From: Calothrix sp. PCC 6303
GTDB taxonomy: Bacteria; Cyanobacteriota; Cyanobacteriia; Cyanobacteriales; Nostocaceae
Reading direction: 5' to 3'
Length of the DNA stretch: 64,000 bases
NCBI RefSeq assembly: GCF_000317435.1
Contig: NC_019751.1
Span: 6,262,001-6,326,000, forward strand
Made by a program: the position numbers and the translations under genes. Positions within the stretch are counted from its first letter, which is position 1. The number at the start of each line of letters is the position of its first letter. The notes beneath the pieces were generated by a model. The model had not been told where the DNA came from and ran no database searches. It was given only the letters and a program-made list of their open reading frames with translations. Shown here one piece after another: positions 10,542-64,000 of this stretch.

Positions 10542-11612
10542 TTAAGGTTGTTTGCCATTTGCTTCAATCACAATGCGAACAACCATCTGGCTTTCTGGTG
10601 GAATAATACCGTCTTTGGTGGAACCCGGTGTAAATCTGGCATTTCTGAAAATTTGGTTGACAATTTCTAAATATTTGTTGCTACTTGCTTTTGGATCTTG
10701 ATTTTTAGGAATATTTGCGGCAACGAAGCTACCTTTATCACTAACCGACAAAATTACGTTGAATTCAATGGGTTGAACGTTGGATGCTTCTATGGAAATT
10801 CCATCTACACCACTAATGATTTGAGGTAGTTTATCAAGTAAATTAAATCGAATTATTTTATTTTGGTCGGCATTTGTTAGTAATTTGAAACTAGCCGTAA
10901 AAGTTTGGGGAAGAATTGGAGGTGTGGTGGGACTGGGGGAAAAGCTGGGGGTGAAGTCTGGTAATGGTGTTTCTTTGCCTGTAGTAATATCACCTGGTTG
11001 TTCTGGATATGTTGGTGTAAATGTTGGGGTTGGGGTTGGAGTTGGGGTTGGGGTTGGAGTTGGGGTTGGGGTTGGAGTTGGGGTTGGGGTTGGGGTTGGA
11101 GTTGGTGTGGAAGTTGGTGTGGAAGTTGGTGTGGAAGTTGGTGTGGAAGTTGGTGTGAAAGTTGGGGTTGGTGTGAAAGTTGGGGTTGGTTTCGGAGGAA
11201 TCAGAGGTTGTTTCTGTACAGGTTGAATTACGATTTTTGGAGGTTTTGTTTTAGGGATTGGTTTAGGTTTGGTTGCTATTAAAGGGGGAAAATTGCGTTT
11301 TTTTATAGTTGGTTTAGGTGCGTAGCCAAAGTTTATACCTTCTCCATCCGATTGCGCGGAGTTTACTTGAGATTTAGACGGGAGTGTAGTGACTTTTGGA
11401 GGAGTTTCTAAAATCTCAATGGGAATAGGATTATTTGATTGCTGACGCGGAATAGAATTTGACTTTGGTTGTGAACTGTAAAAAATCTGCGCGGCAAGAA
11501 CATGTAGTGAGAAAGAGAACACACCCAAAGATGCCCACAGAAAAGGTGGATCTGTATGTCGTCGTAATATTTTGACTGGAGTTGGTGTTTGATCGGCAAC
11601 TGATTGTTTCAT
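10542..11612 (-). CDS. tonB: TonB-like energy transducer with long Pro-Thr linker
   Basis: 356 residues. A single N-terminal membrane helix (~24-46) carries the TonB hallmark Ser-x3-His (S33, H37), which contacts ExbB/ExbD. A periplasmic linker starts with 'SKSQVNSAQ'-type sequence and Lys-Pro pairs, then contains about 25 Pro-Thr dipeptides (residues ~140-200). The C-terminal ~110 residues ('[19 protein letters not shown]', '[19 protein letters not shown]', '[11 protein letters not shown]') fit a TonB C-terminal domain, which grips receptor TonB boxes. Function: couples proton motive force to outer-membrane receptors such as the one at 4248. It starts 46 bases after the cyaC stop on the same strand. 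ExbBD are not in the window. Confidence 0.8.
11018..11195. repeat. Hexa-/dodecanucleotide tandem repeat in tonB
   Basis: GTTGGGGTTGGA-type units (11029-11105) followed by GTTGGTGTGGAA units (11100-11160) on the plus strand, encoding (Pro-Thr)n on the minus strand. Unit boundaries are exact multiples of 6, so copy-number change keeps the frame and only alters linker length. Confidence 0.85.
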
Positions 11613-26557: not shown

Positions 26558-29500
26558 CTAATCTCCGATTGAACAAAAACCTGCCCATGCTTCGGGATTT
26601 TTTAAGGGTATTTCGTCGGTTTTAAACCAGGTTTGCAGGTATTCTGTAATTGTTTGTTTATGTTCTGCATCGATTTTCTGGTGATTTTGCGTCCATGTGA
26701 TTAATTCTGTTTGGGTAGAAGTTCGTAACCAGTATTGTGCTTCTGCTAATGCTTTTGCTGTGGATAAAGAAGGGGATTTAGTGGCAGAATCATCATAAAA
26801 AATATCATAAAAACGAATCATTAATAATGTAGTGGCAAAATCATCCACTGACCACAAACTACTAATGACACTAGAACTGCCAGCTTTGAGGAAACCACTT
26901 GGTAAACCAATGTATTCATCACTGGAATTTACGTCAATGCGTCCAGTTTCACAAGCTGAAAGTGTCACCAAACGACATTCCGGTAAGGAAAGATTAAAAA
27001 TATCTCCAAGTGTGAGGCACTTATTTAAATCTATTTGATTGCCATTTGCTAAACGACGATAACTATAGCTTTCAGTTGTATTTCCGCTACTATTGTCGTG
27101 ATTTACCCCACAACCCGCAAGTGCGATCGCGCTTTCTGCTGGAGAATCGGTGTTAAAGTAACCATGGCAGGAAAAATGTAAGACTTGGGCAGTTTGCAAG
27201 CTGTCAGCATGAGGCTTTTGTTGTAAAGCATCGCTAGTTGCATCACCTTTTTTCAAGACTGTTGTCGGTTGAAAATGACGTTCGATGGTTTCGACTTCGA
27301 TATTGGTGTAAAGTAAATTGTCATTCGGGTCTTGTACTGCAAAAAAGCTTTGAGATTGGTTATTAATATCTTGCCGTTCTCGCTGTTTTCTTACAAGTTT
27401 TAATAATTGACTGCTGGGTGCATACTTCACACCACAAGCAAAGCGATCAAGTAACACCTGTTGTGAGGTTAATTCAGGGATTTGCCGAGTTGAATTAGCG
27501 ATGGGTAATGCATGAAGCGGGTATAAATGCAGAAACCGATGGGGAACAAGGATCAAGGTTTCGCAACAGTCGGGAATTAGTTCGAGAACTTCATCAATAT
27601 GGAGAATACTAGCTAATTCTCCCAGTAGCGAAGCTAATTTAAACCTCCATTTAGGTTTGTTGGTATTGTAGATGTGGAGAGATTCATTCGAGAAATTATT
27701 TAATTTTTCCAAATCTTCCCTTGTAGATTCCCATTTTAAAAGCTTTTCAGCATCTTGGATAATGATAAAAGCTCGAAAACACTCAGCAAAAATATACCAT
27801 TCCACAATTGCAGTGCGATTATCGATTAAAAGTGATTTTATTTCAGTAAAACCCATTGGTGGCAACGGGATAATTTTATCTATCTTGTTGTTGCGTTCTT
27901 TCCGTAATTGATTGAGTCGAGTGGTTTCTGTGTTTTCTTCCCCACCTTGAGTTTGCAGTTCCTTTGCAGCTGCTAACCGTCGCTTTTCTTCCTCAATTTC
28001 TAATCCTACCTGTTGTAAAGCTTGGCTTTGGTTTGCTAACAGTTCGACTAAATTCCGGGTTTTGCTGCGTTCGATATATTCAATAGCTTCTCCATCTTTA
28101 CCCAATTGTAGGCAAACTTCAGCCATTCCTTGATAAAGCTTATTCCATTCCTCCGCAAGCTTTTGTTTCGCTTCCGCACCAGAGAAAATTTCACCCCGCA
28201 GTAACTCGACTGTATCAATACTCGATTTATAGGTTTGATGTGCATTTTCCCACTGTTGAGCATATTGATAGGTTAAACCCAGGTTGTATGCTGCCTCAAC
28301 ATGTATGTGGGGAAAGCTATTACGAGTGAAGATTTCTAATGAAGCTTGTAAAGGTTGAATCGCATCTTCCCAATTCTCTGTTTTATTCTCGCGGATATAT
28401 TCCCGGTAAGCTAAACCAAGATTGCTTTGAGTTTTTGCCCACATTTCGGAATTACGATCCTGTTTAAATTCTTCCAAAGCTATTTTATAAAAGTGGATCG
28501 CATCTTTCAAATTCTCTGCTTCTTCTCCCCGAATCCTATGCAAGTAAGCAGAACCAAGGTTGCTTTGAATTTCTGTCCAATCTTGAGGAAAACGATCGCG
28601 TTTATATTCTTCTAATGCTGCGTTATAGTAGCGAATCGCAACTTCCAAATTCTCCGCTTTTTCTCCCCTAATCCTATACAAGTAAGCATTACCAAGGTTC
28701 ATTTGGGTACTTGCCCACGTTTCGGGATTGCGATCGCGTTTACGTTCTTCTAATGCTGCATTATAGTAGCGAATCGCATTTTCCAAATTCTCCGCTTTTT
28801 CTCCCCTGATCCTATACAAGTAAGCATTACCAAGATTGTTTTGAATTTTTGCCCAATCTTGAGGAAAATAATCGCGTTCAAATACTTCCAAAGCTGCATT
28901 ATATTGTCCAATCGCAGCTTCCAAATTCTCCGCTTTTTCTCCCCTAATCCTCTCCCAATAAGCATTACCCAGGTTCATTTGGGCTGTTGCCCAATTTCCG
29001 GGATTGCGATCACGTTTAAATTCATGCAAAGCTAGTTTATGGTAGCGAATCGCAACTTCCAAATTCTCGGCTTTTTCTCCCCTGATCCTATTTCTGTAAG
29101 CTTCACCAAGGTTAAGTTGGACTTTTGCCCAATCTTCGGGAAAGTGATCGCGTTTAAATTCATGCAAAGCTAGTTTATAGAAGCGAATCGCATCTTCTAA
29201 ATTCTCGGCTTTTTCTCCCCTGATCCTATTTGAGTAAGCATTACCAAGGTTCATTTGGAATGTTGCCCAATTTTCAGGAGAGTACGAACGAGTAAAAATT
29301 GTTAGTAATATTTCATAACCAGCAATAACTATTTCTAAATTATTAGCTTTTTCCCCTAAAGGAAACTCACGAAGCAAAACACAAAAATTACCAATATTTG
29401 CAGCGATGTTTACAGCTTCCCTACTACTTGCTTGCGACAGTTCTGACTCTCCCCACCGCTTAAATACCGTCAGAAATTGCTCATCAAGCAGGTGTAGATT

Positions 29501-36267: not shown

Positions 36268-36435
36268 GAATCTTGTGTTGGTGCGATTAAAATCAGTGAA
36301 CAGTGAACAGGGGATAGGGAACAGGGAACAGTTAGTTCTCGCAGTTTCAGTTTTTCTATAGGTTCAGTAGTCATCGGGGATTTAACCTTATGACTGCTGC
36401 CTTCTGCCTCCTGTCTTGTGCCTTTCCTAAAGAAA
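36268..36435. other. Spacer with CAGTGAACAGTG-type direct repeats
   Basis: At ~36295-36335 tandem GTGAACAG/GGGAACAG units, the same kind of repeat that extends the hisC frame at ~19690. Upstream of pheT; nothing coding. Confidence 0.45.
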
Positions 36436-38280
36436 TTATTCTCCTCTAGGAGAACCCTCTCCCCTAGGAGAGGCAGCACCTTCTAAACTACCATCAGGTT
36501 TAACAATAATCGTATTGGCGTTTCCCCAGGTGGCAGTTTCTTTGATATTTTGTCCACGACGACGCAGTTCATTGAGTGTCATGATATCTAAACCGAATGG
36601 TTCAACTCGCAACTCGTCGGGAAGCCATTGGTGATGAATATGGGCAGCGGAAACAGCAGCGCCTGCATCCATATTGTATTCTAAAACATTAAGGATTACT
36701 TGGAGTACCTGAGTAATAATGGTACTACCTCCAGGGGCACCCACAACCATCCGCAGTTGACCTTTTTCGGTGATGATGGTTGGTGTCATACTAGATAAGG
36801 GTGTTTTTTTAGGAGCTATAGCGTTTTTCAAATTACCCACTAATCCAAAACTGTTGGGGACTCCTGGGGCAACAGCAAAGTCATCCATTTCGTTGTTTAA
36901 TAATATCCCTGTACCCGTAGCCACTACCCCAGCACCAAACCCGGTATTAACTGTAAATGTCAAACTCACAGCATTACGCTGACTATCAATAACGTTGATA
37001 TGACTGGTTTCGGGAGATTCGTAACCTGGGAATTTCGCATTCGTAACTAAATTACTTGACAAAAACTGCTTTCTCTGATTCTCTCCTTCTTCCCCTGCAC
37101 CTCTTCTCCCCCTGCCCCTCTTCTCCCCCTGCACCCTGCCCCTCTGCTTCTTCTCAAATATCCCCGGTTTAACTTCACTAGCTGGTTTTGCCATTTGCAT
37201 ATCGATTTGGGCGCGACGCAGTTTAGCGTAGGCTGGACTAATTAATTGCGTAACGGGTACCTTTACAAAGTCAGGATCTCCCAAATGTTCTGCACGATCT
37301 GCGTAGGCGATTTTCATCGCTTCTACTAACAAGTGTAAACTGTCGGGGTTATGCCATCCTAAAGTTTTCAGGTCGGTATCACCCAGAATATTCAGTATCT
37401 GTAGCAGGTGAACACCTCCCGATGAGGGTGGTGGCATTGAACACACTCGTACCTTGCGGAAATCACCACATACAGGAGTTCGCCAAATTGGTTTATATGT
37501 CCTCAAATCCTCCAGGTTAATCAATCCACCATTTTTTTGCATATCGGCGGTGATGAACCTGGCAGTTTTGCCAGTATAAAAACTTTGGGGATTGCGGCTA
37601 AGTTCGGTGAGGGTTTGGGATAAATCGATTTGGATGAGTTTTTCCCCTGGCTGGTAAAAGTCACCATTGCGGGTAAAAATTGCCTTGGCAGCGGGATTAC
37701 TGAGAATTACTTTTTTGCGTTCTTCATAGGCATACATCGAACGTGGTGTCACCACTTTGTTGATAATAAAGCCTTGACGCGCCAGTGCGATCGCTGGTTG
37801 AAAAAGATCCGCCCAGGGCAACTTTCCATAGCGTTGATGAACTTCATACAACCCGGCAATTGTTCCCGGCACCCCTACCGCCAAATGTCCGTTTGTACTG
37901 CCACCGACACGTACTTTACCCTGTGCATCTAGATACATGTTTTTTGTGGCTTTGAGGGGGGCGCGTTCTCTAAAATCAAGGCTTTTGATTTCCCCAGTTT
38001 TCGCATCCCGTATCAATAAAAACCCTCCCCCACCAATTCCCGCAGCAAAGGGTTCCACGACAGAAATCGCCAAGGTTGTAGCAACGGCTGCATCAACTGC
38101 GTTACCTCCTTTTTGCAACATTGCTAACCCTGCATCGCTAGCTAAAGGGTTTGCCGACACAACCATTGCCTTTTTGGTACGCAAGGGGGAAACGAAAGCT
38201 GCAAGTGTAATTTGATGGGAGAAAATAACACCAATGGCAACAATAGTAGATACAAGCTGTTGATATTTTTTCAAAGCCAT
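36436..38280 (-). CDS. ggt: Gamma-glutamyltransferase (exported)
   Basis: 614 residues from the ATG at 38280 (a TTG at 38295 is also open). Signal peptide to ~28 ('TIVAIGVIFSHQITLAAF'). Large subunit: 'VSANPLASDAGLAMLQKGGNAVDAAVA', 'IGGGGFLLIRDAKTG', 'LDFRERAPL' with the gamma-glutamyl-binding Arg. Autoprocessing/nucleophile Thr is T~425 in 'ESPETSHINVIDSQRNAVSL' (TTH in E. coli is TSH here), followed by 'GILLNNEMDDFAV' and 'PLSSMTPTIITEKGQLRMVV'. Two oddities: a ~25-residue basic, Gly/Arg/Glu-rich insertion ~30 residues before T425, and a C-terminal tail 'ASPRGEGSPRGE' translated from a repeat. Cleaves the gamma-glutamyl bond of glutathione in the periplasm. 54 bases after the phytochelatin-synthase gene. 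Confidence 0.92.
   Translation of the reverse strand: MALKKYQQLVSTIVAIGVIFSHQITLAAFVSPLRTKKAMVVSANPLASDAGLAMLQKGGNAVDAAVATTLAISVVEPFAAGIGGGGFLLIRDAKTGEIKSLDFRERAPLKATKNMYLDAQGKVRVGGSTNGHLAVGVPGTIAGLYEVHQRYGKLPWADLFQPAIALARQGFIINKVVTPRSMYAYEERKKVILSNPAAKAIFTRNGDFYQPGEKLIQIDLSQTLTELSRNPQSFYTGKTARFITADMQKNGGLINLEDLRTYKPIWRTPVCGDFRKVRVCSMPPPSSGGVHLLQILNILGDTDLKTLGWHNPDSLHLLVEAMKIAYADRAEHLGDPDFVKVPVTQLISPAYAKLRRAQIDMQMAKPASEVKPGIFEKKQRGRVQGEKRGRGRRGAGEEGENQRKQFLSSNLVTNAKFPGYESPETSHINVIDSQRNAVSLTFTVNTGFGAGVVATGTGILLNNEMDDFAVAPGVPNSFGLVGNLKNAIAPKKTPLSSMTPTIITEKGQLRMVVGAPGGSTIITQVLQVILNVLEYNMDAGAAVSAAHIHHQWLPDELRVEPFGLDIMTLNELRRRGQNIKETATWGNANTIIVKPDGSLEGAASPRGEGSPRGE
37070..37155. repeat. Low-complexity C/T-rich in-frame insertion in ggt
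   Basis: CCCCTGC and CTTCTCC words tandemly repeated on the plus strand, e.g. CTTCTCCCCCTG units around 37100-37140. Reads without a stop through ggt on the minus strand as basic/acidic residues ('EKRGRGRRGAGEEGE'). Confidence 0.75.
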
Positions 38281-38334
38281 TTTTGGTAAATTCAATAGAT
38301 TTATAATCCCTGAAGCCCTGTCGCGCCCGTCTTT

Positions 38335-39072
38335 CTATTTTTTACTAGCAATCACAAATCCACGAGTTTTATTTACAGATGTGTCAGTAGTATTCATCGC
38401 TTTCCACAAATCGGCTGCTTTTACCCAAATTGGCGGATATTTATAGCGAGATACATCCAAAATCAAAAATCGATCAGTTTGCTCATTGTATGCCGCCAAA
38501 GGTGAAATATGTCCACCAGTTTCTTGACCGATGGCTTTGCGTAAATAGTTGATGATAATATAATTATTAGGTTGTTTGAGATTGTTGATCGCTAATTTGC
38601 GAAATTCATCAATCGATGAATCGGCAGCATGATATACCTGAGCTTGAACATCATAACTACTAATTAATCCGCCTATTTGTTCCAAAGTCATTCCTTCGCG
38701 GGAAACAATCTCAGCGGTGGTAATTTTTTTAGTTTTTTCTAAATCAAAAAGATTCTGCTGAGTAAAAATTTTAAAAGGCTTATATTGCGATGCTTCCGGT
38801 GCGGTGATACCTAAGCTATTCAGCACCATTACAATGCTGGCAACCCCACAATAAGCTTGATTATCTTGGGTAATAAATTGACTACTGAGGGGAAAGAAAT
38901 CTGCTCTCGATTTACTTTCAACTAGTAATTTTTCCCCTGATTCAGAATTAAAGTTAATCAGATTTTCTGTCAGGGGAAGAGTTTGAGCTATTGCACTTCC
39001 AGCAGCGACAACTGTACTAAACAAGAGAGTTGGTAGATAACCCTTAGCTAATTTCATTTTCAAAAACTTCAT
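38335..39072 (-). CDS. Primitive phytochelatin synthase-like glutathione gamma-glutamylcysteinyl transferase
   Basis: 245 residues, the size of Nostoc Alr0975 (NsPCS). Signal peptide at ~10-30 ('LPTLLFSTVVAAGSAIAQ'), so exported. Papain-like triad present: C75 in 'NQAYCGVASIVMVLNSL', H188 in 'TGGHISPLAAYNE', D206 in 'RFLILDVSRYKYPP'. Lacks the Cys-rich C-terminal domain of plant enzymes. The Nostoc protein mainly hydrolyses glutathione to gamma-Glu-Cys plus Gly and makes little phytochelatin. Immediately upstream of ggt on the same strand, so the two can degrade glutathione in sequence on the same side of the membrane. Confidence 0.92.
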   Translation of the reverse strand: MKFLKMKLAKGYLPTLLFSTVVAAGSAIAQTLPLTENLINFNSESGEKLLVESKSRADFFPLSSQFITQDNQAYCGVASIVMVLNSLGITAPEASQYKPFKIFTQQNLFDLEKTKKITTAEIVSREGMTLEQIGGLISSYDVQAQVYHAADSSIDEFRKLAINNLKQPNNYIIINYLRKAIGQETGGHISPLAAYNEQTDRFLILDVSRYKYPPIWVKAADLWKAMNTTDTSVNKTRGFVIASKK

Positions 39073-59629: not shown

Positions 59630-62600
59630 TCAATTACTCCCAACATCAGCACAAGCAGATACCGCAGGACGAGAATTTGGTGTCACACTTGGTGCTTCCG
59701 CTACTAAGTGTAAAGTTCCATCGGCATCCCGAACTATAGCTTGAGCCTCCACAATCCTGTTGGGTGTGGTTTTTTGTACCATCAACCTATCTGGAATTGA
59801 ATTAACTTTTTCAGTAAAATTAGTTTCATTCAATGTAGCAAGTTCACTAAAATCGGCTCCACCCTGCATCAAGTTAATAACCGGATTAGTTGGTAAAGTA
59901 CCTTGCTTTCCAGTGATAATAAACTCACCTAAAGGCTTTTTACCTCTACCGCAAAGTTGATCTATTTCATCGCTTTTATCTTTGAAGGCTTCAGGTGACT
60001 GTATTAAAACTCGATTGGAATCTACATCAGGTTTGCGGATGGAAATTTGCCCTTGTAAACCACGTTCGGAACTTGCAGTAATGTCGCTTTGTTCTGTGGG
60101 TTTGGGACGTGCTTCGATACCAAAGAGGTTTTGGGCTTGGATGTTGATATTACCACCAGTACCCGTGAAAGCATTGGCTAAGATATCGCTGTTTTCCTTG
60201 GGTACAGCAACGATAAATTTTGTGTTGAGATTAATGTTACCGCCATCGCCACCAGATTGTGCCGTACCTGCTGTTGCTGAGATTTCACCACCGCGACGTA
60301 GTAGCAGTACATCACTGTTGAGGTTGATGTTACCACCGTTACCTGATGCGGATTCAGCGTTGAGTTTACCTTGGTTATCCAAAGTGATTCTCGGTGAATT
60401 GACTTCGATGTCACCCGTAACACCCGCACCAGTGGAACTAACGAAAAAGCCACTGTTAGCGCCGATATTGCCGATGCGATTTGGAAAATTAGCTAGCCTA
60501 TCATTATAGTTAGGATCGTTTGCACTGATTGTCACCCTGTCTTTGGCGTTAACTGTAATTTTACCCGCACTTCCATTGCCGGATGTAGTTGTAGTCAGTT
60601 GTCCACCATTAAGTGCTTCCACCACATTTGCAGTGATGGTTATATCACCACCCCGATTATTATTGAAGGTGCCTGCATCTAATAAAGCACCATCTCTCAC
60701 CTTGAATGAATTGGAATTGATCGTAATATTCCCCCCATTTCCTTCCGTACCTGGTTGTACACGACTGAAAATAGCACTGGATAATCCATTTTTGACACCA
60801 GCAATATCAACTACCCCAGAAACCTTCACATTCACATTCCCCGCATCACCCTTCCCTGGAGGTTGGGTATCAGATGCACCACGGGTAATAGTTAGCAGTT
60901 GAGCGCCATCAGTGAGGGATAAGCTAGCTGCATCGATGTCGATATTACCACCTTTACCCACACCCCCTGCTTCCACTGTGCTGAAGATGTAGGCACCTGT
61001 AAGGGAAACAGCATCTGTAGCTGTGATTTTCACACTCCCCGCATTCCCCTGTCCACGGGTTGAGGTATTAAGTTCAGCTTCATCAGTAAGGGATAAACTA
61101 GCTGCATTGATGTCGATATTGCCACCCTTACCCACACCCCCTGCTCGTACTGTGCTGAAGATATCGGCATCTGTAAGAGAAACAGCATCTTTTGTAGTAA
61201 CTGTAATATTTCCAGCCTGACTGTAAGGTGACTCCAAACCTTTTCCAGCAGTACTAGCAACAAGTCGAGCACCATCACTGAGGAAAAATGAACCACTAGA
61301 AATATTAATATTTCCCCCATTACCTCTTGCTCCCTCTTCCACATCGGTGAAAATTGCACTAGGAAGTTTGCCGTTAGTTCCAGAGATAGTTACAGCACCA
61401 GTAACATTAATATCAATATTTCCACTATTACCTTGTCCACCTGGTTCCTCAGCGTTTGATCCATTGATTCCACTTTGGAGTTGAGCACCATCAGTTAGGG
61501 AGAGAGAACTTCCTCGGATGTTTATACCTCCACTACTGCCCACACCTCCTCTTCCAATATTACTGAATATCTTGGCATCTGTAAGGGAAACAGCATCTGT
61601 GGCAGTGATTTTCACACTCCCCGCATTCCCCTGTCCAAAGGTTGAGGCAGTAAGTTGAGCACCATCTCGCAGTTGGAAAGAGCCTGCACCAATGGTAATA
61701 TTACCCCCATTCCCTTCGGCACCTGTTCCTACATTACTGAAAATAGCACTGGAAAATCCATTTTTGACACCAGCAATATCCACTACCCCAGAAACCTTCA
61801 CATTTACATTCCCCGCATCACCCTTCCCTGGGGGTTGAGTATCAGATGCACCACGGGTAATAGTTAGCAGTTGAGCGCCATCAGTGAGGGATAAACTAGC
61901 TGCATTGATGTCGATATTCCCACCTTTACCCACACCCCCTGCTCGTACTGTGCTGAAGATGTTAGCACCTGTAAGGAAAATAGCATCTGTAGCGGTGAGT
62001 ACCACATTTCCTGCCTGGCTGTTAGGTGACTCCAAACCTTTTCCAGCAGTACTAGCAACAAGTTGAGCACCATCACTGAGGAAAAACGAACCACTAGAAA
62101 TATTAATATTTCCCCCGTTACCTCTTGCTCCATTTTCCACATCAGTGAAAATTGCGCTAGGATTTCCACTTCCACCTTTTCTTCCAGAGATGTTTACTGC
62201 ACCAGTAACATTAATATCAATATTTCCACTATTACCTTGTCCACCTATTTCCTCAGTGTTTGATCCACTGATTCCACTTTGGAGTTGAGCACCATCAGTT
62301 AGGGAGAGAGAACTTCCTCGGATGTTTATACCTCCACTACTGCCCACACCTCCTCTTCCAATATTACTGAAGATGTCACCATCTGTAAGGGAAATAGCAT
62401 CTGTAGCTGTGATTTTCACACTCCCCGCATTCCCTTCTCCAAAGGTTGAGGCAGCAAGTTGAGCGCCATCTCGTAGTTGGAAGGAGCCTGCACCAATGGT
62501 AATATTCCCCCCATTCCCTTCCGCACCTATACCTACAGTACTGAAAATCCCACTGGGAAAAGTATCTTTCTTCCCAGCAATATCCACTACCCCAGAAACC

Positions 62601-64000
62601 TTCACATTCACATTCCCCGCATCACCCTTCCCTGGGGGTTGAGTATCAGATGCACGACGGGTAATAGTTAGCAGTTGAGCGCCATCAATGAGGGATAAAC
62701 TTGCTGCATCAATGTCGATATCACCACCCTTACCCACACCCCCTGCTTCCACTGTGCTGAAGATGTAGGCACCTGTAAGGGAAACAGCATCTGTAGCTGT
62801 GATTTTCACACTCCCCGCATTCCCTTCTCCAAAGGTTGAGGCAGAAAGTCCAGCACCATCTCGCAGTTGGAAGGAACCTGCACCAATTGCAATATTCCCC
62901 CCATTCCCTTCCGTACCTGTTTCTACACTACTGAAAATAGCACTGGATAATCCATTTCTGACACCAGCGATATCAACTAATCCAGAAACCTTCACATTCA
63001 CATTCCCCGCATCACCCTTCCCTGGAGGTTGGGTAGCAGATGCACCACGGGTAATAGTTAGCAGTTGAGCGCCATCAGTGAGGGATAAACTAGCTGCATC
63101 AATGTCGATATTGCCACCCTCACCCACACCCCCTGCTTCCACTGCGCTGAAGATGCTGGCATTACCTGTAAGGGAAACAGCATCTGTGGCTGTGATTTTC
63201 ACACTCCCCGCATTCCCCTTTCCAAAAGTTGAGGCAGAAAGTCGAGCGCCATTGGTAAGTTCAAGGGAGCCTGAAGTGATACTAATGTCACCGCCTTTAC
63301 CTATTGCTCCAGTATTTACCCAGCTATAAGCACCACTTTCGTAAGTGCCTTTACCGTCAAAGGACACTGCATCTTTCGCTGTAATAGCAATATTTCCTGC
63401 ATTGCCTTGACCATAAATAGTTGTGTCAAAGTATGCCCCATTGGTGAGGGAGACATTGCTTGCAGTGATGTTAATATCGCCAGCATTACCTATGCCGCCA
63501 ACATTACCTATATCGCCAACTATATTTTCAACAGTGCTCTCATCAAGGTTAATAGCTCCTGTAGTGTTGATGTCAATGTCTCCTGCTTGAGCATTCACAG
63601 ATCCTGAGTCTGTTGCAATACCTGCACGAAGTCTTGTTCCTGCTCCTGTTCCCGTGAAGTTACGTGCAGTAATGGCAATGCTGCCGCCTCCACCAGCACG
63701 AACATTCACGATCGCATCATTCCTGATTGCCACATCATCTCTTGCTACATTATCAGGAAAACTCAAACTGCGATCGCTATTCAAGCTAACCGTCCCTGAT
63801 GCTGAAACAGCTCCTAATTCAACTCGTCCTCCAGGTGCTAGTAACTGCCCACCATCAACATTTACAGTCCCACCCGCCAAGGTTAAAGTCTGACCATTAG
63901 GAACCTGTAAACTTGCTCCCTGGACTTGAATCGCCTCCGGATTGTTGCCATACTGCAACCCCAAAGGTACACTCACCACCAGTAATGAAGGGGCTTGGGG
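59630..64000 (-). CDS. Filamentous-haemagglutinin-type adhesin, C-terminal part
   Basis: The frame stays open past the right edge ('PSLLVVSVPLGLQYG' continues leftward in the protein), so the N-terminal signal and most of the two-partner-secretion (TPS) domain are missing; ~1456 residues are here. Start is therefore not in the window. The visible part begins with the end of the TPS-like region ('LAGGTVNVDGGQLLAPGGRV') and continues as parallel beta-helix with 'GNAGSVKITATDAVSLTG' type units in higher-order repeats (~residues 260-1170). The Cys-containing C-terminus ('LCGRGKKPLGEFIITGKQG') and 'NPVINLMQGGADFSEL' are typical of cyanobacterial TPS exoproteins. Function: secreted surface adhesin exported by a TpsB partner outside the window. 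The stop lies 20 bases beyond a repeat. Confidence 0.9.
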   Translation of the reverse strand, partial: PQAPSLLVVSVPLGLQYGNNPEAIQVQGASLQVPNGQTLTLAGGTVNVDGGQLLAPGGRVELGAVSASGTVSLNSDRSLSFPDNVARDDVAIRNDAIVNVRAGGGGSIAITARNFTGTGAGTRLRAGIATDSGSVNAQAGDIDINTTGAINLDESTVENIVGDIGNVGGIGNAGDINITASNVSLTNGAYFDTTIYGQGNAGNIAITAKDAVSFDGKGTYESGAYSWVNTGAIGKGGDISITSGSLELTNGARLSASTFGKGNAGSVKITATDAVSLTGNASIFSAVEAGGVGEGGNIDIDAASLSLTDGAQLLTITRGASATQPPGKGDAGNVNVKVSGLVDIAGVRNGLSSAIFSSVETGTEGNGGNIAIGAGSFQLRDGAGLSASTFGEGNAGSVKITATDAVSLTGAYIFSTVEAGGVGKGGDIDIDAASLSLIDGAQLLTITRRASDTQPPGKGDAGNVNVKVSGVVDIAGKKDTFPSGIFSTVGIGAEGNGGNITIGAGSFQLRDGAQLAASTFGEGNAGSVKITATDAISLTDGDIFSNIGRGGVGSSGGINIRGSSLSLTDGAQLQSGISGSNTEEIGGQGNSGNIDINVTGAVNISGRKGGSGNPSAIFTDVENGARGNGGNINISSGSFFLSDGAQLVASTAGKGLESPNSQAGNVVLTATDAIFLTGANIFSTVRAGGVGKGGNIDINAASLSLTDGAQLLTITRGASDTQPPGKGDAGNVNVKVSGVVDIAGVKNGFSSAIFSNVGTGAEGNGGNITIGAGSFQLRDGAQLTASTFGQGNAGSVKITATDAVSLTDAKIFSNIGRGGVGSSGGINIRGSSLSLTDGAQLQSGINGSNAEEPGGQGNSGNIDINVTGAVTISGTNGKLPSAIFTDVEEGARGNGGNINISSGSFFLSDGARLVASTAGKGLESPYSQAGNITVTTKDAVSLTDADIFSTVRAGGVGKGGNIDINAASLSLTDEAELNTSTRGQGNAGSVKITATDAVSLTGAYIFSTVEAGGVGKGGNIDIDAASLSLTDGAQLLTITRGASDTQPPGKGDAGNVNVKVSGVVDIAGVKNGLSSAIFSRVQPGTEGNGGNITINSNSFKVRDGALLDAGTFNNNRGGDITITANVVEALNGGQLTTTTSGNGSAGKITVNAKDRVTISANDPNYNDRLANFPNRIGNIGANSGFFVSSTGAGVTGDIEVNSPRITLDNQGKLNAESASGNGGNINLNSDVLLLRRGGEISATAGTAQSGGDGGNINLNTKFIVAVPKENSDILANAFTGTGGNINIQAQNLFGIEARPKPTEQSDITASSERGLQGQISIRKPDVDSNRVLIQSPEAFKDKSDEIDQLCGRGKKPLGEFIITGKQGTLPTNPVINLMQGGADFSELATLNETNFTEKVNSIPDRLMVQKTTPNRIVEAQAIVRDADGTLHLVAEAPSVTPNSRPAVSACADVGSN
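60700..63230. repeat. Higher-order tandem repeats in the adhesin gene
   Basis: Two kinds of ~400-bp module alternate. Type A contains 'TITRGASDTQPPGKGDAGNV' and 'VSGVVDIAG', type B contains 'FSNIGRGGVGSSGGINIRG'. Read N- to C-terminal the order is A, A, B, A, B, short spacer, A, with A copies at ~63.2-62.8, 62.8-62.4, 62.0-61.6 and 61.05-60.7 kb. Near-identity of the DNA points to recent duplication or conversion and makes assembly errors possible. Confidence 0.8.

What the first reader, a model, noticed from the sequence alone, without database searches (positions are those of the whole stretch)
37006..37155. Low-complexity insertion just before the autocleavage threonine of gamma-glutamyltransferase
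C/T-rich repeats at 37070-37155 add ~25 charged residues ('EKRGRGRRGAGEEGE') about 30 residues before T425, the nucleophile of self-processing. In E. coli GGT this stretch is flexible and moves on cleavage, so it may tolerate expansion. The frame is kept and downstream active-site residues are intact.
Basis: partly seen in the sequence, partly recalled or inferred. Interest (0 to 1): 0.52.

Follow-up and report, generated by a model that had tools for sequence, protein, structure and literature searches.

The report
Genome repeat inside self-cutting enzyme linker
In this cyanobacterium a scrap of scattered repeat DNA is read in frame as part of the loop just before the self-cutting site of an enzyme (gamma-glutamyltransferase), and several related species carry other scattered repeats at the same spot, so the loop looks like a recurrent safe place for repeat DNA inside a protein.

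Summary
The insertion is real: a purine-rich tract (about 37068-37155, minus strand, 17-nt units) lies in frame in a full-length gamma-glutamyltransferase (GGT), in a 51-residue linker before the self-cleavage threonine. The linker has 9 residues in the three non-cyanobacterial GGTs compared and 10-67 in cyanobacteria. It is by far the most length-variable site in 95 cyanobacterial GGTs, and the only stretch that AlphaFold leaves disordered.

The tract belongs to a dispersed repeat: 12 other matches in this genome, at least 5 of them inside open frames of known families. Five other GGT linkers, picked because they look repetitive, match 42-63 further places in their own genomes, from different repeat families. 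Two long linkers without obvious repeats match nowhere else. Best reading: recurrent in-frame capture of dispersed repeats in a tolerated loop, comparable to Rickettsia palindromic elements but of another sequence type.

'Active-site residues intact' needs correction. The catalytic core is intact, but this is the only one of 95 GGTs that lacks both partners of a conserved Arg-Asp pair (here H552/S609). In H. pylori GGT that pair is a salt bridge, and mutating its arginine impaired self-processing. Whether this enzyme still cleaves itself is open.

The parts
36436..38295 (-). gamma-glutamyltransferase gene (619 aa from TTG; ATG at residue 6)
   Evidence: AlphaFold model closest to the E. coli T391A precursor 2e0w
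37009..37161 (-). linker (residues 379-429) before the self-cleavage Thr; corresponds to the C-terminal P-segment of the large subunit
   Evidence: pLDDT under 50 for residues 382-424
37068..37155 (-). purine-rich repeat tract read in frame (EKKQRGRVQGEKRGRGRRGAGEEGENQRKQ)
   Evidence: 12 other matches in the genome
37006..37008 (-). codon of Thr430, the self-cleavage nucleophile (E. coli T391)
36640..36642 (-). codon of His552, where 92 of 95 cyanobacterial GGTs have Arg (E. coli R513, H. pylori R502)
36469..36471 (-). codon of Ser609, where the other 94 of 95 have Asp (H. pylori D562)

Best explanation
A copy of a short dispersed purine/pyrimidine-rich repeat of this genome lies in frame in the loop (P-segment) that precedes the self-cleavage threonine of GGT. 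The loop tolerates it because it is disordered, lies outside the Ntn fold, and after cleavage is only the C-terminal tail of the large subunit. In Nostocales this loop repeatedly takes up short dispersed repeats, of different families in different lineages, while selection keeps the reading frame. Shown: dispersed copies, hotspot, disorder, other repeats at the same place in other species, same repeat in frame in other proteins. Inferred: that the repeats arrived by insertion or copying rather than growing in place, that they are close to neutral, and that the protein still processes itself.
For: The window tract matches 12 other places in its genome (40 of 44 candidates scored), while the 1133-nt rest of the 5' part of the gene and the 81-nt non-repetitive end of the linker region match only themselves. 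Five other linkers, chosen because they look repetitive, match 42, 47, 63, 49 and 61 further places in their own genomes. In 95 non-redundant cyanobacterial GGTs the linker has length SD 13.55 and 34 distinct lengths; the next site has SD 3.72 and lies in the signal-peptide region. Without picking: 11 of 48 linkers of 20 aa or more match flanking DNA of the loci, against 3 of 240 coding segments of equal length. On a tree built without the linker, long/short needs at least 10 changes, 8 forced by starred branches. The AlphaFold model leaves only residues 382-424 under pLDDT 50. Of the 12 other matches in the window genome 5 lie in open frames of known families: 3 in a CobN/Mg-chelatase protein, 1 in a polyketide synthase, 1 in the C-terminal tail of TrmD. 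At the first CobN site 10 of 13 relatives have 15 residues against 51 here; in the other 3 the recovered frame did not reach the site.
Against: Two of two long linkers without an obvious repeat match nowhere else in their genomes, and 37 of 48 have no match (the window's own among them; that set is only 0.46 Mb), so much of the length variation is unexplained or too decayed. The AAAATCC-type repeat gives 43 matches in Microcoleus, whose linker is nevertheless only 14 aa, so having a repeat in the genome is not enough. No empty site in a close relative, no target-site duplication and no inverted repeats were found for the window tract; its sister in the tree, with a 13-aa linker, is placed with support 80 only. 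I expected such repeats to be stop-free in all frames; over whole linkers they are not (77 of 96 alternative plus-strand frames hold a stop, about the rate of shuffles).
Confidence: 0.8

Rival explanations
1. Local expansion: the tract grew in place by replication slippage of a short purine-rich seed, and resemblance to tracts elsewhere is convergence of low-complexity DNA.
For: The tract has 17-nt tandem units. The close pair L033/L034 differs in number of a 9-nt unit (CATCCCCCT 1 against 5 times), so unit number does change within the linker.
Against: A 35-nt piece matches elsewhere in the genome at 97% identity. The linkers hold elements that are not simple repeats, with 47-61 further matches in their own genomes and none in the window genome. 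Slippage after arrival remains likely.
Confidence: 0.15
2. Functional linker: the long charged tail is selected, for example to slow self-cleavage or to bind the large subunit to membrane or partner.
For: The window linker is basic (12 K/R, 7 D/E). The frame in use is the most hydrophilic of the three in 23 of 48 long linkers and the least in 9 (related sequences, not independent).
Against: Neither sequence nor length is conserved between lineages: 34 lengths in 95, with acidic, basic, Ser-Pro and other tails.
Confidence: 0.1
3. Decaying enzyme: the gene is losing function, so insert and changed maturation residues are signs of relaxed selection.
For: Both partners of the conserved Arg-Asp pair are changed, in 1 of 95. 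GGT is dispensable in the group: 5 of 60 relatives have no match, and three more hold only fragments. It is the only GGT match in this genome.
Against: Intact frame, complete catalytic core, 4 changes at sites conserved in 97% or more (rank 8 of 95, median 1), end branch 0.24 against 0.22 in its sister. Most species with repeat-filled linkers keep the pair (92 of 95 have Arg/Asp).
Confidence: 0.2
4. Assembly or sequencing artefact.
For: Low-complexity DNA is error-prone (general knowledge).
Against: The genome is held as 4 contigs of 6.96 Mb, 99.98% complete; the frame is kept; comparable tracts occur at the same place in other assemblies.
Confidence: 0.02

Closest known systems
Rickettsia palindromic elements (RPE) in protein-coding genes
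   Same: Short dispersed repeats translated in frame inside conserved proteins; one such enzyme (guanylate kinase, gmk) was reported to stay active (PMC10969869 and PMC2229807, passages).
   Different: RPEs are about 100-150 bp palindromes with inverted repeats and a conserved peptide; the window tract has no inverted repeat and no stable fold, and the GGT site holds different repeat families in different lineages.
STRR and other short repeats of heterocystous cyanobacteria
   Same: Dispersed short tandem repeats in this group; described as usually 7-bp units (PMC2670836, passages). [quoted passage not shown] inside a gene (seen only in reference lists; paper not held).
   Different: The units here are 17 nt, and the tract is translated inside a protein.
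REP elements (GTAG/CGTC families) inside genes
   Same: REPs located inside genes, also as translated clusters, are reported in several species; the families occur in cyanobacteria (PMC3733652, abstract and passages).
   Different: Those are palindromic and tagged with GTAG or CGTC; the window tract is not palindromic.
Bacterial gamma-glutamyltranspeptidases (E. coli, H. pylori, B. licheniformis)
   Same: Fold, catalytic core and lid-loop region.
   Different: Linker of 51 aa instead of about 9; H552/S609 instead of the Arg/Asp pair. Cyanobacterial GGTs lacking other processing residues (the threonine dyad, in Calothrix PCC 7507 and two more strains) have been reported (PMC3826126, passages).

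Membership tests
gamma-glutamyltranspeptidase (PF01019) | Full-length match to the family profile | tested here: met
   579 bits, residues 58-614 against profile 2-512 of 512
gamma-glutamyltranspeptidase (PF01019) | Ntn-hydrolase GGT fold | tested here: met
   Model mean pLDDT 86.1; best PDB match 2e0w_B, E 2.0e-49, TM-score 0.92 over the target
gamma-glutamyltranspeptidase (PF01019) | Nucleophile Thr and catalytic core (E. coli T391, T407, T409, N411, D433, S462, S463, G483, G484, R114) | tested here: met
   Each identical in 95 of 95, the window included; mapping; the numbers of D433, S462, S463, G483 and R114 are recalled
gamma-glutamyltranspeptidase (PF01019) | Conserved Arg-Asp pair (R502/D562 in H. 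pylori GGT) reported as important for processing | tested here: not met
   H552/S609; R/D in 92 of 95, H/D and L/D in one each; role of the pair from PMC8062742, passages
gamma-glutamyltranspeptidase (PF01019) | Self-cleavage and enzyme activity | not testable with these tools
   Needs purified protein
Rickettsia palindromic element-type repeats | Palindrome with inverted repeats | tested here: not met
   0 inverted pairs; fold z-scores -0.09 and -0.62
Rickettsia palindromic element-type repeats | Dispersed copies, in frame in unrelated proteins | tested here: met
cyanobacterial STRR | Tandem units of usually 7 bp | tested here: not met
   Period 17; definition from PMC2670836, passages

The most novel reading that the evidence does not exclude
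The loop before the self-cleavage site of GGT is a recurrent safe harbour for dispersed repeats in heterocyst-forming cyanobacteria, so that unrelated mobile or slipping repeats keep entering one spot of one enzyme in many lineages. In the window species the long basic tail goes together with loss of the conserved Arg-Asp maturation pair, giving a GGT whose self-cleavage is changed or replaced by another route.
Probability: 0.2. Interest if true: 0.75.

Novelty: new variant of a known kind. Interest (0 to 1): 0.55.

Why it matters
It turns a 'low-complexity insertion' into a natural experiment. One loop in one self-processing enzyme has been filled with different repeat DNA in different lineages, which shows where a protein can absorb new sequence and how repeats become coding DNA outside Rickettsia. 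The loss of both partners of the Arg-Asp pair in the same protein makes a clear test of whether that pair is needed for self-cleavage.

Tried and rejected
Pseudogene or artefact as the main reading: rejected. 'Repeats are tolerated because they are stop-free in every frame': rejected for whole linkers (77 of 96 alternative plus-strand frames hold a stop; shuffled frames 74%). 'All long linkers are repeats': rejected (0 of 2; 37 of 48 without a match). A second repeat family in the non-repetitive end of the window linker: none found. RPE- or MITE-like structure of the tract: none found. Rows dropped before counts: of 110 loci (80, 30), L082 (no C-terminal part), L083 and L116 (frame breaks) and L040 and L076 (stops) were left out; then L089 (the window's own gene), L085 (partial), L086-L088 (not cyanobacteria) and 6 duplicates, leaving 94 plus the window. 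In the four broken genes with both parts the linker itself has a length divisible by three (coordinates), so the breaks lie elsewhere.

Full report
OBSERVATION. The gene 36436-38295 (-) encodes a GGT of 619 aa from TTG or 614 from the internal ATG. [quoted passage not shown] Between Gly378 and Thr430 lie 51 residues encoded by 37009-37161, of which about 37068-37155 is a purine-rich tract with 17-nt units. Within the 64-kb window no other 30-nt purine tract (up to 2 mismatches) was found; shuffles give 0.08 matches on average against 12 overlapping ones here.

COMPARISON WITH ORTHOLOGUES. I compared 80 loci from named genomes (capped list) and 30 from relatives. The linker is 9 aa in the three non-cyanobacterial GGTs and 10-67 aa in the cyanobacterial ones. 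Low values (10-16) hold for most non-heterocystous forms, with exceptions such as L068 (28) and L049 (34); long ones are mainly Nostocales by organism name (the grouping by name is mine). In 95 non-redundant sequences the region 380-425 has length SD 13.55, range 57 and 34 distinct lengths; the next most variable place (residues 24-25) has SD 3.72 and 7 lengths. The window's nearest row in the tree by topology is L113 (G009), with a 13-aa linker, at support 80. Long (20 aa or more; 48 rows) against short (47 rows) needs at least 10 changes, 8 forced by starred branches; shuffled labels need 31.9 on average, so length is also inherited within clades.

THE LINKER DNA IS DISPERSED REPEAT DNA IN SEVERAL GENOMES. 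The window tract has 12 other matches (E up to 0.001) in its own genome, two of them overlapping (40 of 44 candidates scored). The 1133-nt rest of the 5' part of the gene matches only itself, and so does the 81-nt non-repetitive end. I then picked five other linkers because they look repetitive, from different parts of the tree. Further matches in the genome of origin: L034 42 (40 of 504 candidates scored, so a lower bound), G004/L071 47, G018/L093 63, G022/L110 49, L020 61. In other genomes the same queries gave: L034 12 in Calothrix brevissima, 5 in Microcoleus, 3 in Oscillatoria; L071 37 in G001 and 0 in the window genome and Microcoleus; L093 5 in the window genome and 43 in Microcoleus; L110 and L020 0 in both. 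Two long linkers without an obvious repeat (L094/G007, L101/G017) matched only themselves. A test without picking: all 48 linkers of 20 aa or more against 0.46 Mb of flanking DNA gave matches for 11 of 48, against 3 of 240 coding segments of equal length; the window tract had none in that small set. So repeats explain a share of the long linkers, not all.

THE SAME REPEAT IN OTHER PROTEINS OF THIS GENOME. Of the 12 other matches 3 lie in a 1383-aa CobN/Mg-chelatase protein, 1 in a polyketide synthase between domains (HglE-like by recall), 1 in the C-terminal tail of TrmD. Two lie in N-terminal extensions whose start codon is doubtful (GH8, KdpD), 2 in open frames without a tested or found family, and 3 overlap no frame of 80 aa or more. 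In CobN, 10 of 13 relatives have 15 residues where the window genome has 51; the frames recovered from the other 3 did not reach the site. A second CobN site varies in length among relatives too (16-42 against 48) and again looks repeat-like. Tolerant linkers in general, not GGT alone, take up such DNA.

STRUCTURE AND MECHANISM. The AlphaFold model (46 sequences, mean pLDDT 86.1, pTM 0.88) has one segment under 50, residues 382-424. Its best PDB match is the E. coli T391A precursor. In E. coli the C-terminal P-segment of the large subunit flips out after cleavage and a lid loop takes its place (PMC8062742, passages). I infer that the insert is tolerated because it extends a segment that is loose before cleavage and a free tail after it.

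MATURATION RESIDUES. The catalytic core is identical in 95 of 95. Position 552 (E. coli R513, H. pylori R502) is Arg in 92, His in the window and L020, Leu in L077; position 609 (H. pylori D562) is Asp in 94 and Ser only in the window. The review reports that E. coli R513A blocks processing and that in H. pylori the Arg502/Asp562 salt bridge matters, R502L impairing processing and activity. The window GGT thus lacks both partners. It is not otherwise decayed: 4 changes at strongly conserved sites, rank 8 of 95, median 1. Whether His/Ser can stand in is unknown. Cyanobacterial GGTs lacking the threonine dyad have been reported (PMC3826126, passages).

KNOWN KINDS. In-frame repeats in proteins are known from Rickettsia and for REP elements, short tandem repeats from heterocystous cyanobacteria. 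The window tract lacks inverted repeats and stable folding and does not have 7-bp units, so I do not file it as RPE or STRR. Searches for print on this listed no paper whose title or abstract start describes repeats in the GGT linker; only open-licence papers are held, lists were capped, and key older papers were not held.

Noticed in passing
38335-39072 (-): Phytochelatin synthase homologue (PF05023, 3.2e-80) directly upstream of GGT; both enzymes act on glutathione-type compounds. A homologue lies in the short flanks of 13 of 109 other GGT loci.
   Followed up: partly
L119, L120, L121 (genomes G006, G008, G014): Only C-terminal fragments of GGT remain; in G006 the fragment lies next to phytochelatin-synthase-like remnants. 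GGT has no match in 5 of 60 relatives.
   Followed up: partly
L129:3830-7981 (genome G000): CobN/Mg-chelatase protein with three low-complexity stretches; one site looks like a second repeat-filled hotspot across relatives.
   Followed up: partly
L127:806-1543 (genome G000): TrmD, usually an essential enzyme (recalled), ends in a tail encoded by the same purine-rich repeat.
   Followed up: no
36290-36430: Repeat-like DNA downstream of GGT (GGGATAGGGAACAGGGAACAG, CTGCCTTCTGCCTCCTG), seen by eye.
   Followed up: no
36438-36475: The 3' end of GGT encodes ASPRGEGSPRGE from two near-palindromes (TCTCCTAGGGGAGA, TTCTCCTAGAGGAGAA); related endings occur in many orthologues.
   Followed up: no
11011-11190; 28415-29353; 62343-63252: Other tandem arrays in the window: GTTGGG-type, 138-bp units, 390-bp units.
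   Followed up: no
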